A DNA stretch of 8,090 bases, taken from assembly GCA_902774195.1 (NCBI GenBank), contig CACYHM010000083.1, positions 1-8,090 on the forward strand, read 5' to 3'. Each line of letters opens with the position of its first letter. Position 1 is the first letter of the stretch. This document shows, in pieces, positions 2,800 through 6,802 of the stretch. Origin of the DNA: an uncultured Eubacteriales bacterium. Its GTDB lineage: Bacteria; Bacillota_A; Clostridia; Peptostreptococcales; Anaerovoracaceae. The position numbers and the translations under genes are program-made. The notes below the pieces were generated by a model, which saw nothing but the letters and a program-made list of their open reading frames with translations, made no database searches and had not been told where the DNA came from.

Positions 2800-2958
2800 A
2801 AGCAACGCGTTAAGATACGGCAATTTGCAGAGAAGGGATCGCTGACTGCCGGAATAGTATTAACTATAGAATACAGGAGGTCTTTTTCGGAGATCATAAA
2901 AGAGGCGGATTCCTTTGAAGAGACTGTTGAGCTTGTAAGGTCCTTTGAGCCGGTCCTG
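2800..2958 (+). other. In-frame 5' extension of the ATP-grasp gene without a start codon
   Basis: The ligase frame stays open upstream to a TGA at 2797-2799. These 53 codons read like genuine family sequence (for example AGIVLT, then EADSFEETVELVRSFEPVLV leading into VIAGSENG), matching the N-terminal pre-ATP-grasp region. They contain no ATG, GTG or TTG. The AGGAGGT at 2875-2881 looks like a ribosome site but has no start codon in this frame at a suitable distance; there it simply encodes part of YRRSF. The codons between the exonuclease stop and this TGA (PDNIRSGG) might also be family sequence, so a nonsense change or a lost 5' end is possible. Confidence 0.5.
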
Positions 2959-4410
2959 GTGATAGCAGGCTCGGAAAACGGAGTGCCGCTGGCGACACAT
3001 CTTGCGGACGAGCTAGGACTTCCGGGAAACCCGTGGAAGAATATCGATAAAATGATCAACAAGGACGCCATGCAGAAAGCGCTGGAAGACGCCGGCATAC
3101 GTTCGATCAAAGGGCGAATAGTCAAATCTCCGGAGGAAGCGCTCGAATTCTGCCGCGAAAACGGCTTTACTACTGCAGTGGTAAAGCCTCTACGGGGTGC
3201 AGGAAGCCAGGGACTCTTTCTGTGCGACGATCTTGATGAAGTGAAAAACGCCGTAAGCGAAGTCCTGTCGATGAAGAACTTTTTCGGCAATGAGAACAGG
3301 GAAGTGCTCGTGCAGGAACGTATAGTCGGTACGGAGCACATAGTCAATACTGCTTCGTGCGACGGGATGCACAGAGTCACATCTGTTCTCAGGTACAGAA
3401 AGGTAGCGACTCCTGAAGGCGCATATATATATGACTACATGGAAAACATCATGAGGCTCGAGCCGGGTCATGGTGCACTGATAGAATACGCGCTGAAAGT
3501 CGCCGACGCGATCGGGATAAAGTACGGGATGATCCATGGCGAATATATGCTCGACAAGGACGGCCCGGTGCTTATAGAAGTAAACTGCCGCCCTATAGGC
3601 GGTACTCAGCCTGCCGAATACATGGATATGATCTTCGGCCAGCATGAGACGGATTCCATGCTCGACAGCATGCTCGATCCCGAGAAATTCAAACGTGATG
3701 CGGCAAAGCCTTACCGCCCTCACCGCAAAGCGGTGCTGAAATTCATCATGGTGCCGAACGAGATGGATGTAGAAGATCATCCTGTCTGGGTCGTAGCAAA
3801 AAGACTCAGAAGTGTGTTCAGCCTGTCCGCAGAAAAAGTTTCTACGCCGAAGCACTATTTCAAGACGAGGGATGTTGAGAGCAGCGGAGGCATGATATTT
3901 ATGGTCCATGACGACGAAAATGTCGTACTGTCGGAACTCAGTTTCCTGAGAAGGATAGAGAAGAGCTTTTTCCAGTTCCTGCTGAACGAAGGAATGTCAA
4001 GACCGTGGTTCAAAAGGGAAGACACTATGACAGACTTCAGCGAGGTGATACGCAGGAACGGCTGCTGCGGAAGCATACTACTGGCGACGGATACACCGGA
4101 ACGTAAAGAGGGCATGCAGGTAGTGTCGCCGGATACTCTGTCAGATGCGAAGGGAGGCTTCGATTATGTTATCGTGGGATATCAGAACAGCCTGGTCGGC
4201 CGCAGCGAGTCAGATCTGCTGGAGCTGTTATTTGACACGATCGATCAGGTACGGGAGGGCGGAAGAGTCATAATACCGCCTGAGATATACCGGTACTTCT
4301 CGTACGGAAGGAAAGGCGCGGAGCTGCTGCTGTCCATAGGAAGGTGCACGTTAGAAGCGCCGACACAGGGTGCTGCAGCGGATGTAGTGGCTACAAGGGA
4401 ATCTTTATGA
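2959..4410 (+). CDS. ATP-grasp carboxylate-amine ligase-like protein with an extra C-terminal domain, 5' end uncertain
   Basis: ATP-grasp enzymes activate a carboxylate with ATP as an acyl phosphate and couple it to an amine or thiol. Counting from GTG 2959, the sequence shows GLPGNP and KDAMQKALEDAGI (start of the fold), the nucleotide-binding Lys76 in AVVKPLRGAGSQG, Glu120 in VLVQERIVGTEHIVN, and the metal-binding acidic site at Glu195 (HGEYM) and Glu207/Asn209 in GPVLIEVNCRPIGG. This resembles the amino-acid or dipeptide ligase branch (BacD-like). Residues from about 365 form a separate segment (GSILLATDTP, FDYVIVGYQNSLVG, VREGGRVIIP, then a long tail to ADVVATRESL) reminiscent of the C-terminal half of a class I methyltransferase, without the SAM-binding glycine loop. 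GTG 2959 has no Shine-Dalgarno sequence and cuts into conserved sequence, so it may not be the true start. The gene could be a 5'-damaged pseudogene. Substrate unknown. Confidence 0.75.
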   Translation: MIAGSENGVPLATHLADELGLPGNPWKNIDKMINKDAMQKALEDAGIRSIKGRIVKSPEEALEFCRENGFTTAVVKPLRGAGSQGLFLCDDLDEVKNAVSEVLSMKNFFGNENREVLVQERIVGTEHIVNTASCDGMHRVTSVLRYRKVATPEGAYIYDYMENIMRLEPGHGALIEYALKVADAIGIKYGMIHGEYMLDKDGPVLIEVNCRPIGGTQPAEYMDMIFGQHETDSMLDSMLDPEKFKRDAAKPYRPHRKAVLKFIMVPNEMDVEDHPVWVVAKRLRSVFSLSAEKVSTPKHYFKTRDVESSGGMIFMVHDDENVVLSELSFLRRIEKSFFQFLLNEGMSRPWFKREDTMTDFSEVIRRNGCCGSILLATDTPERKEGMQVVSPDTLSDAKGGFDYVIVGYQNSLVGRSESDLLELLFDTIDQVREGGRVIIPPEIYRYFSYGRKGAELLLSIGRCTLEAPTQGAAADVVATRESL

Positions 4411-4446
4411 TCATAGCCTGAGAAGTTGTGCAGCAAAAAAATAAAA

Positions 4447-4563
4447 AAGGAAGGGAATTTTGCGCGCGGGACACGAGACCGGCTTCGGCTGCTGCGGTTT
4501 CAGACGCGTGTACATGCAGCTTGTCCGATCTTCCTGAAACACACCTGGCGGTGTACCTTCCTT
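4447..4563. repeat. Structured repeat, copy 1
   Basis: The outer arms are AAGGAAGG (4447-4454) and CCTTCCTT (4556-4563). Inside are GTTTCAG (4497-4503) complementary to CTGAAAC (4534-4540), GCTGC (4491-4495) complementary to GCAGC (4516-4520), and a hairpin ACACC-TGGC-GGTGT (4541-4554). This is the most divergent copy: its left internal stem around CGG/CCG is only about 3 bp, and its last hairpin has an extra C-G pair. Confidence 0.8.
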
Positions 4564-4605
4564 CGAAATCATATTATATACTGCTTTCAAAAAAAGTCTA
4601 CAAAA

Positions 4606-4721
4606 AAGGAAGGGGATTTTGCGAGTCGGCAACGAGACCGGCTTAGGCTGCTGCGGTTTCAGACGCGTGGATATGCAGTTTGTCCGATCCTCCTGAAACA
4701 CACTTTGCGTGTACCTTCCTT
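4606..4721. repeat. Structured repeat, copy 2
   Basis: The outer arms are AAGGAAGG (4606-4613) and CCTTCCTT (4714-4721). The left internal stem is GTCGG with CCGGC (one G-U pair). GCTGC pairs with GCAGT through a terminal G-U. GTTTCAG/CTGAAAC is unchanged, and the last hairpin is ACAC-TTTGC-GTGT. Confidence 0.8.
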
Positions 4722-4763
4722 CAAAATCATATTATATACTACTCTCTAAAAAAGTCCACAAAA

Positions 4764-4879
4764 AAGGAAGGGGATTTTGCCGGTGAGCCACGAGACCGGC
4801 TTAGGCTGCTGCGGTTTCAGACGCGTGGATATGCAGCTTGTCCGGTCTTCCTGAAACACACTTTACGTGTACCTTCCTT
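4764..4879. repeat. Structured repeat, copy 3
   Basis: The outer arms are AAGGAAGG (4764-4771) and CCTTCCTT (4872-4879). The left internal stem is a perfect 6 bp, GCCGGT (4779-4784) with ACCGGC (4795-4800). GCTGC (4808-4812) pairs with GCAGC (4833-4837), GTTTCAG (4814-4820) with CTGAAAC (4851-4857), and the last hairpin is ACAC-TTTAC-GTGT (4858-4870). Confidence 0.8.
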
Positions 4880-4982
4880 TGAAAACATATTACATGATTT
4901 CTTTCTAAAAAACCATAAAAAATGATATTATGAACGTGACTTTATATTTACTGGAAGTGATTGTAATATCTTTAGGAATAAC

Positions 4983-4988
4983 GGAGAG
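4983..4988 (+). promoter_or_regulatory. Ribosome binding site of the 5'-nucleotidase gene
   Basis: GGAGAG lies 8 bases before the ATG at 4997 and fixes this start rather than the ATG at 4989, which overlaps the site. Confidence 0.6.
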
Positions 4989-4996
4989 ATGAAACG

Positions 4997-6802
4997 ATGA
5001 ACAATGACACCGTAAAGAAAAAATGGTACATGGAGATCGCTGTCATGCTCTGCATCAGCGCACTGGTACTTGCTGTCCTGATCGTTGCGACCCCGCTCTT
5101 TCCTGCTGCAGGGACCGGCGAATACAGGCTTGCGGTCATAGAAACATCGGATATCCACGGAGCGCTTGTAACGGGGGAAGACCCTGACTATCAGTACAGG
5201 GTCGCATACATTGCCGACAAGGTCAATGATGCGAGAATGACGGAGGACGGCGAGGATCCCGACAGGCTCGTGCTTCTGGACGGCGGCGATATCTATCAGG
5301 GCTCTTCGCTTTCGCTTCTGAGTGAAGGCGAAGCTATGTCGGCGGTATTCGATGAGATGGACTACGATGCTGTGGCAGTCGGCAATCACGAATTCGACTG
5401 GGGCGTAGAAAAGGTGATCGATACTGATCAGACCATGCGCGACTACGAGATAGACGGGAAAAAACATAAGAACGACATTCCTGTCATATGCTCGAACCTG
5501 TACAAGGACGGCAATAAGGTGGAATTTGCTGATGACTACGTGATACTCAATAAGGAAGCCGCAGATGATGCCGGAAAGACGAAAAAAGCCAGAATAGGCG
5601 TGCTGGGCTTTGCCGAAGATTATTCCCTTTCGAATCCTGAAAAGAAATTTACGGATCTCGGCTACAGCATATCGGAAGACTATGATGAGACGAACCGGCT
5701 GGCCCGGGAGCTCAAGAGCGAAAAGGGATGCGAAGCGGTCATACTGCTGTCTCACGGGAATGCACAGAAGGCCGCGGAAGGACTCGGAGAGGGCACTCCG
5801 GTAGATCTCGTTCTCGGAGGCCACATACACAAAAGTGTCAGTGATACCACTGAATGGGGTCTCAGGTACCTTAGTCCTTCAGGCAGCGCCTATACATATG
5901 TCTACGATGAACTGGTATTTGAAAATGACGGCAGAGGCGGCCTCCGCACAAAGGAAGGCGCCGATGACAAAGCGCAGTGCATCAAAACTGCCGATGATGA
6001 GAGCAAACTTGTCGATGATGAGAAGAACGCAGAGGAGCTTGACCATGAGGCCATCGAGCTGACGGATGAGTATATCGACAGGGTCAGGCCGTACCTTGAG
6101 GAAGAGATCGGATACATCACGGAGGACGTGACCAAGGATACTATCGAAGGCAGCGGCAACAGATCATCAACGGAGAACAATTTTGTGCTCAATGCCATGA
6201 GACGATCTACCGGTGCTGAGGTAGCATTTATAAACAGGTCCGGGACACGCGGTAATATGTACCTTAATCCGGGGAACGACCGCCGCTCAGTGACCATGGG
6301 CGACATGTTCACGATGCTGCCTTTCGATGACAGACTGTATGAATATGACCTCACATACGGAGAACTGCTGGATGTACTGAATTTCGGGATGAACGGCGGA
6401 GCATTTACTCTTTTCACCTGCATGACCGGTATCGACTGCTTTTTTGAGGACGACCCGGCGTCAGATCCGAACAAACAATACAAGGACACTGTCGTTACTG
6501 CGCTTGTTAAGGACGGAGAACTGATCTACCATGACGGACGATGGAAAGAAGGGTGGAAGGACAAAAAAGTCAGAGTCGCAGTGATCGAGTTCGCGGCCGT
6601 CGCTGAAAAGACAAAACAGGGGGCCGTAAATCCGCTGTACGGATTAAACGGAACAGACAGTCTGGTGGCAAATGACAAGATCGTTCGCGACTGTGTGATC
6701 GAAGGCCTCAAGGCTGAAGCAAAGGAAAACGGCGGACATCTCAGTGTGGACCACGAGACATGCTATAAATACAAGGCTTATGACGGCGGAGAGGAATTAT
6801 AA
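4997..6802 (+). CDS. Membrane-anchored or secreted 5'-nucleotidase / cyclic phosphodiesterase family metallophosphatase
   Basis: The 601-residue product begins with a short charged stretch and a hydrophobic segment (about residues 14-36), a signal peptide or N-terminal anchor, so the enzyme should act outside the membrane. The N-terminal metallophosphatase domain shows every motif of the family: Asp52 and His54 in SDIHG, Asp98 in GGDIYQGS, Asn130 and His131 in GNHEFDWG, His253 in LSHG, and His276 and His278 in GGHIHKS, together binding two metal ions. The C-terminal substrate domain follows from about residue 370, with ENNFVLNAMR, an NRSGTR block (family usually NxGGIR), TMGDMFTMLPFDDRLYEYDLTYGELL and the NFGMNGGAF region. 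Such enzymes remove phosphate from extracellular nucleotides or 2',3'-cyclic nucleotides. An unusually acidic, Lys/Glu-rich insert lies around 310-370. The C-terminus shows no LPXTG motif. The gene appears monocistronic and ends at a strong terminator. Confidence 0.9.
   Translation: MNNDTVKKKWYMEIAVMLCISALVLAVLIVATPLFPAAGTGEYRLAVIETSDIHGALVTGEDPDYQYRVAYIADKVNDARMTEDGEDPDRLVLLDGGDIYQGSSLSLLSEGEAMSAVFDEMDYDAVAVGNHEFDWGVEKVIDTDQTMRDYEIDGKKHKNDIPVICSNLYKDGNKVEFADDYVILNKEAADDAGKTKKARIGVLGFAEDYSLSNPEKKFTDLGYSISEDYDETNRLARELKSEKGCEAVILLSHGNAQKAAEGLGEGTPVDLVLGGHIHKSVSDTTEWGLRYLSPSGSAYTYVYDELVFENDGRGGLRTKEGADDKAQCIKTADDESKLVDDEKNAEELDHEAIELTDEYIDRVRPYLEEEIGYITEDVTKDTIEGSGNRSSTENNFVLNAMRRSTGAEVAFINRSGTRGNMYLNPGNDRRSVTMGDMFTMLPFDDRLYEYDLTYGELLDVLNFGMNGGAFTLFTCMTGIDCFFEDDPASDPNKQYKDTVVTALVKDGELIYHDGRWKEGWKDKKVRVAVIEFAAVAEKTKQGAVNPLYGLNGTDSLVANDKIVRDCVIEGLKAEAKENGGHLSVDHETCYKYKAYDGGEEL

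What the first reader, a model, noticed from the sequence alone, without database searches (positions are those of the whole stretch)
4447..4879. Three tandem copies of a palindrome-bounded, multi-helix unit: candidate new structured RNA or repeat family
The same unit of about 116 bases occurs three times with period 158-159 and is bounded each time by AAGGAAGG and CCTTCCTT. Inside, at least four complementary segment pairs sit at the same relative places in every copy. Conservation is highest in CACGAGACCGGCTT and GCTGCTGCGGTTTCAGACGC, not in anything protein-like. I cannot match it to a riboswitch, 6S, tmRNA or other known RNA from memory. A tandem array of structured RNAs, or amplification of a MITE/REP-like element that folds, would both explain it.
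Basis: partly seen in the sequence, partly recalled or inferred. Interest (0 to 1): 0.75.

Follow-up and report, generated by a model that had tools for sequence, protein, structure and literature searches.

The report
Three tandem small-RNA genes, opposite strand
Three neighbouring near-copies of a 158-base unit in an uncultured Clostridia-type bacterium look most like three sister small-RNA genes read from the strand opposite to the one first suspected; no relative was found, so the function is unproven.

Summary
The repeat is real: three units with arms AAGGAAGG/CCTTCCTT at 4447-4563, 4606-4721 and 4764-4879, period 159/158. No Rfam family matches. Best reading: three tandem sibling small-RNA genes on the MINUS strand, about 120 nt each. 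In both inter-unit spacers a minus-strand TATAAT with a 4-of-6 -35 box ends 9 nt before the 5' arm, and in 3 of 3 units the 3' arm runs into six T. Shuffled spacers give both together in 0.04% and 0.1%. The first gene of the array (copy 3) has a weaker promoter. Inside, helices P4/P5 and P3 either form a pseudoknot or alternate. A 9-column stretch beside an invariant C-rich tail holds 7 of 18 variable columns. Three duplicates show no covariation. No homologue was found in the collections searched; the own genome is not held. A plus-strand 25-aa ORF behind a Shine-Dalgarno-like arm is open in 3 of 3 copies, but shuffles give one in 23-28%: a live, weaker rival. Verdict: probably a new tandem sRNA family of a known kind, function inferred only.

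The parts
4760..4880 (-). sRNA copy 3 (first in transcription order): predicted RNA from about 4880 to the T-run at 4765-4760
   Evidence: arms and T-run read; model match 4763-4880 minus
4602..4722 (-). sRNA copy 2: predicted RNA from about 4722 to the T-run at 4607-4602
   Evidence: 4605-4722 minus
4443..4564 (-). sRNA copy 1: predicted RNA from about 4564 to the T-run at 4448-4443
   Evidence: 4446-4564 minus
4731..4758 (-). promoter of copy 2: TGGACT, 16 nt, TATAAT
4573..4600 (-). promoter of copy 1: TAGACT, 16 nt, TATAAT
4889..4894 (-). possible -10 box of copy 3: TGTAAT, poor -35
4764..4879 (-). P1 closing stem of copy 3 (arms 4872-4879 and 4764-4771); same in copy 2 (4714-4721, 4606-4613) and copy 1 (4556-4563, 4447-4454)
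4814..4857 (-). P3 of copy 3: GUUUCAGG (4857-4850) with UCUGAAAC (4821-4814); crosses P4/P5
4793..4848 (-). P4 (4848-4842 with 4799-4793) and P5 (4837-4833 with 4812-4808) of copy 3
4781..4789 (-). variable stretch of copy 3 (copy 2: 4623-4631; copy 1: 4464-4472), alignment columns 94-102
4770..4774 (-). C-rich tail UCCCC before the closing arm (copies 2 and 3; UUCCC in copy 1)
4777..4854 (+). rival reading: 25-aa TTG ORF of copy 3 (copy 2: 4619-4696; copy 1: 4460-4537)

Best explanation
Three tandem sibling small-RNA genes on the minus strand, made by duplication of a promoter-RNA-terminator unit of about 158 bp. Each RNA of about 120 nt would start at the arm GAAGGAAGG, fold into a closing stem (P1), a hairpin (P2) and a P3/P4/P5 core that is either a pseudoknot or a pair of alternating folds, and end where the arm CCUUCCUU runs into a U-run. 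Shown: the repeat, the motifs and their spacing. Inferred: transcription, termination at P1, and function. Most likely function (inference): trans-acting regulators that pair through the C-rich tail (UCCC, CCUUCC) and the neighbouring variable stretch with ribosome-binding sites, the siblings differing in targets through the variable stretch.
For: Minus-strand promoter boxes at the same place in both inter-unit spacers, -10 ending 9 nt before the arm, and six T directly after the closing arm in 3 of 3 units; 5000 shuffles of each of the two spacers give promoter in place in 0.34% and 0.84%, T-run in 5.1% and 5.9%, both in 0.04% and 0.1%. On plus, the best site in about 50 bases upstream of each unit has 8, 7 and 7 of 12 matches and no T-run follows. 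Of four pairs that vary, three stay paired on minus and one on plus (and its complement). Fold z-scores are lower on minus: -2.09, -1.42, -3.26 against -0.51, -1.22, -2.69. No minus-strand gene follows for it to control. Clustered variation, 7 of 18 variable columns in 9, P 0.0018. UCCC in 3 of 3 tails.
Against: Promoter-like sites in the 800-base region are not in excess (2 found, 1.3 expected) and the terminator scan finds none, as it allows loops of 3-8 only. The promoter thresholds were set after the sites were seen. Copy 3 has a poor -35. No covariation. P5 has a broken pair in copy 2. Plus-strand energies for the same helices are as good or better in 5 of 6 comparisons. The plus ORF is open in 3 of 3 copies. 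A stem closing a loop of about 100 nt is not a usual terminator. No homologue found.
Confidence: 0.5

Rival explanations
1. Three small plus-strand cistrons behind the ATP-grasp gene, each coding a 25-aa peptide with ETG-x-GCCGFRRV-x-MQ-x-VRSS; the purine arm is the Shine-Dalgarno site, the pyrimidine arm masks it. They could be precursor or leader peptides.
For: ORF open with the same stop in 3 of 3 copies, the one-base indel lies behind the stop. SD-like arm: only 1.6% of 699 start codons in the window have one as strong as copy 2. 7 of 13 variable bases are third codon positions, P 0.10. Codon score is the best of the three plus frames in 3 of 3 copies.
Against: Shuffles give such an ORF in 23-28%. 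Codon scores 0.9, -2.7, 0.6 against 6.5 (sd 5.4) for gene pieces. TTG start. No Pfam or NCBIfam match; no relative in viral contigs by an exact degenerate pattern; only weak matches, E 0.8 to 7, in phages and plasmids. It does not explain the minus promoter boxes.
Confidence: 0.15
2. Both strands work: the minus RNA is an antisense regulator lying over a small plus-strand peptide gene, in a tandem repeat as in E. coli Ibs-Sib.
For: The predicted minus RNA covers arm, start and all 25 codons in 3 of 3 copies. Sib RNAs cover the whole ibs coding region and ribosome site in a repeat of about 140 nt found five times (PMC4147584, passages).
Against: The peptide is charged, not hydrophobic as type I toxins are described; the ORF is within chance.
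Confidence: 0.1
3. Plus-strand tandem cis-regulatory elements (riboswitch or leader) for the 5'-nucleotidase gene that starts at 4997.
For: Same orientation, 117 bases from the last arm to the ATG; two alternating folds of similar energy.
Against: No Rfam match; no plus terminator or promoter by simple scan; P4 has A-C mismatches on plus in copies 1 and 2.
Confidence: 0.1
4. A MITE- or REP-like palindrome-bounded repeat without RNA function, amplified in place.
For: Palindromic ends; duplication in tandem.
Against: Spacers are duplicated with the units, unlike separate insertions; no copy elsewhere in the window. Scattered copies in the genome could not be tested.
Confidence: 0.1

Closest known systems
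LhrC1-5, multicopy sRNA of Listeria monocytogenes
   Same: Several near-identical sRNA genes, each with a promoter; UCCC motifs that bind targets; small differences between copies (PMC4132741, passages)
   Different: No sequence match in Rfam search here (that LhrC is in Rfam is recalled); closing stem, P3/P4/P5 core; promoter control, expression and targets unknown
csRNAs of Streptococcus and other sibling sRNAs
   Same: Two to six related sRNAs, some in tandem, probably from gene duplication (PMC4211561, passages)
   Different: No sequence relation shown; no CiaR link tested
Ibs-Sib type I toxin-antitoxin repeat of E. coli
   Same: Short repeat in several copies, RNA antisense over a small ORF (PMC4147584, passages)
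   Different: Peptide here is not hydrophobic; ORF may be chance
STAXI motif
   Same: A pseudoknot usually repeated three times (PMC2864571, passages)
   Different: No Rfam match (that STAXI is in Rfam is recalled); none of 8 ORFs scanned is a DNA-binding STAXI neighbour

Membership tests
Tandem sibling sRNAs (LhrC/csRNA kind) | Two or more highly similar copies | tested here: met
   3 copies, 10-14 differences in 118 columns
Tandem sibling sRNAs (LhrC/csRNA kind) | Own promoter for each copy | tested here: inconclusive
   good boxes for 2 of 3 copies, weak for copy 3
Tandem sibling sRNAs (LhrC/csRNA kind) | Intrinsic terminator | tested here: inconclusive
   closing stem plus six T in 3 of 3; standard hairpin scan finds none
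Tandem sibling sRNAs (LhrC/csRNA kind) | Expressed as a discrete RNA that acts in trans | not testable with these tools
   needs RNA-seq or northern blot
Any Rfam 15 family | Score above the family's gathering cut-off | tested here: not met
   0 matches in the window; E 1.3 and 1.5 at best in 4380-5000
Type I toxin-antitoxin (Ibs-Sib kind) | Small hydrophobic peptide | tested here: not met
   peptide sequences, judged by eye
Type I toxin-antitoxin (Ibs-Sib kind) | Antisense RNA over ORF and ribosome site | tested here: inconclusive
   geometry fits in 3 of 3; both transcripts unproven
Riboswitch or leader | Controlled gene downstream on the same strand | tested here: inconclusive
   true for plus (4997), no downstream gene on minus
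MITE/REP repeat | Scattered copies in the genome | not testable with these tools
   own genome not held; no fourth copy in the window

The most novel reading that the evidence does not exclude
A new sRNA family of Mogibacterium-like Clostridia: a folded scaffold, copied in tandem, that carries an exchangeable 9-nt targeting segment beside an anti-Shine-Dalgarno tail, each copy lying antisense over a small peptide gene whose ribosome site is the other arm of the same palindrome.
Probability: 0.1. Interest if true: 0.65.

Novelty: new member of a known kind. Interest (0 to 1): 0.35.

Why it matters
If true it adds an unlisted tandem sRNA family in uncultured Clostridia, and a natural case in which duplicated RNAs keep fold and promoter but vary one short stretch: a direct test of how sibling sRNAs gain new targets.

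Tried and rejected
Rfam at gathering score (whole window) and at E up to 10 (4380-5000): nothing credible. One pattern scan of genome contigs gave one hit, L001, Anaerolineae, which on reading lacks the arms and the rest: taken as chance. Eight viral-contig scans gave no relative: seven DNA patterns (hits 0, 4, 2, 8, 39, 0, 0) and one protein scan. The neighbourhoods of the hits were printed and judged by eye; the 39 were judged only by model R1. R1 over the window and 54 of the 55 loci then held (L002 left out) found the 3 window copies and one match of E 1.9. DNA search of phages: none; plasmids: one 28-base match, E 0.4; E. coli genomes (copy 3 only): none.

A 23-aa minus ORF is in phase in copies 2 and 3 but not in copy 1, and its ATG lies before the predicted transcription start. 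Paired-loop test: in the real MFE folds the loop complement appears in copy 3 only (7 nt, not 8; 0.3% of 600 shuffles), not in copies 1 and 2, so the pseudoknot is weakly supported; with linkers of about 1 nt both helices may not fit together, and alternation is as likely. The variable stretch is not plainly single-stranded: constrained folds give it a different small hairpin in each copy. By pairs its clustering is weaker: P 0.036, 0.050, 0.008. Duplexes with gene starts in the window were computed without a control and are not used. Integron attC sites, CRISPR and type III antitoxin repeats were set aside from recall: no such gene among the 8 ORFs scanned, and spacers that are conserved.

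Full report
What is there. The window holds three tandem copies of one unit between an ATP-grasp gene (plus strand, stop at 4410) and a 5'-nucleotidase-like gene (plus strand, ATG 4997). Arm to arm the copies run 4447-4563, 4606-4721 and 4764-4879, spaced 159 and 158. They differ pairwise at 13, 14 and 10 of 118 gap-free columns. The 3' arm plus spacer is 91% alike after copies 1 and 2; the same stretch after copy 3 is 71% alike. So a unit that includes the spacer was duplicated. The closest named relative in the listed part of the uridine-kinase search is a Mogibacterium sp. MAG, 86%; those of the nucleotidase and ATP-grasp are Lachnospiraceae MAGs, 62% and 57%. The host is an uncultured Clostridia-type bacterium (inference); no whole genome is held.

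Which strand. On minus each inter-unit spacer reads: T-run of the previous unit, TGGACT or TAGACT, 16 nt, TATAAT, 9 nt, then AAGGAAGG. At the other end CCTTCCTT continues so that six T follow CCTTCC in 3 of 3 copies. In 5000 dinucleotide shuffles of each of the two spacers, a promoter of this quality in this place occurs in 0.34% and 0.84%, and together with the T-run in 0.04% and 0.1%. The thresholds were set after the sites had been seen, and over 800 bases promoter-like sites are not in excess (2 against 1.3 expected; no standard terminator). So this is good, not overwhelming, evidence. For copy 3 the -10 is TGTAAT and the -35 is poor. On plus the best sites upstream of copies 1, 2 and 3 have 8, 7 and 7 of 12 matches, and no T-run follows the units.

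Structure. On minus five helices can be written: P1 (9 bp), P2 (4 bp), P3 (8 bp), P4 (7 bp), P5 (5 bp); 99% of 97 cells pair, slid controls 36-52%. The structure was read from these same sequences, so the slid controls prove little. No pair changes on both sides, and the measures equal their shuffles: no covariation. Four pairs vary on one side; three stay paired on minus (P1 end, two in P4) and one breaks (P5 end, copy 2); on plus, by complement, the reverse holds. P3 crosses P4/P5. With P4/P5 against P3 the minus energies are -37.2/-35.0, -28.5/-34.1 and -36.7/-34.1 kcal/mol for copies 1, 2, 3: the folds may alternate, or coexist as a pseudoknot. The same helices on plus give -36.3/-37.7, -32.6/-38.6, -41.4/-40.8, so energy does not favour minus; z-scores do. 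The free consensus folds of the two strands have nearly equal energy, -33.65 and -33.61.

Variable stretch. Seven of 18 variable columns fall in 9 neighbouring columns (94-102), P 0.0018 for random placement; pair by pair P is 0.036, 0.050 and 0.008. It lies just before the invariant GCAAAAU and the C-rich tail, with UCCC in 3 of 3 copies. In Listeria LhrC, UCCC sites bind targets, and small differences in the C-rich segments are suggested to widen target choice (PMC4132741, passages). The same role here is inference.

Plus-strand ORF. A 25-aa TTG ORF follows the purine arm in 3 of 3 copies. For it: a strong SD-like arm (matched by 1.6% of 699 start codons of the window), 7 of 13 variable bases at third positions (P 0.10), and the best codon score of the three plus frames. 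Against it: 23-28% of 4000 shuffles per copy hold such an ORF, its codon scores (0.9, -2.7, 0.6) lie below those of gene pieces (6.5, sd 5.4), and no family or convincing relative was found. It stays a rival, also as an Ibs-Sib-like antisense pair.

Homologues. None was found in Rfam, one genome contigs pattern scan, eight viral-contig scans, phages, plasmids or E. coli genomes. The patterns demand exact stretches, so diverged relatives would be missed; metagenome contigs were not searched.

Literature. In seven searches with capped listings I saw no title or abstract start describing this element. Beyond listings I saw only found passages of PMC4132741, PMC4211561, PMC2864571, PMC8632094 and PMC4147584. 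Tandem sibling sRNAs are a known kind. I file this as a probable new member of a known kind, function unproven.

Noticed in passing
2890-4407: The ATP-grasp protein matches a 560-aa relative (P0121, 98%) from residue 55 on; its first 54 residues were not found in the window by tblastn. Truncation, replacement or an assembly join upstream of 2890.
   Followed up: partly
378-590: A 70-aa ORF matches only the first 49 of 623 positions of the OPT transporter family, then breaks off: a gene fragment or another join.
   Followed up: no
4059-4070: The 12-mer CGGCTGCTGCGG of copy 1 also occurs inside the ATP-grasp gene, probably by chance.
   Followed up: no
2959-4407: The ATP-grasp protein scores below cut-off but best with PRK07206 and dapdiamide A synthase DdaF: perhaps an amino-acid ligase.
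   Followed up: no
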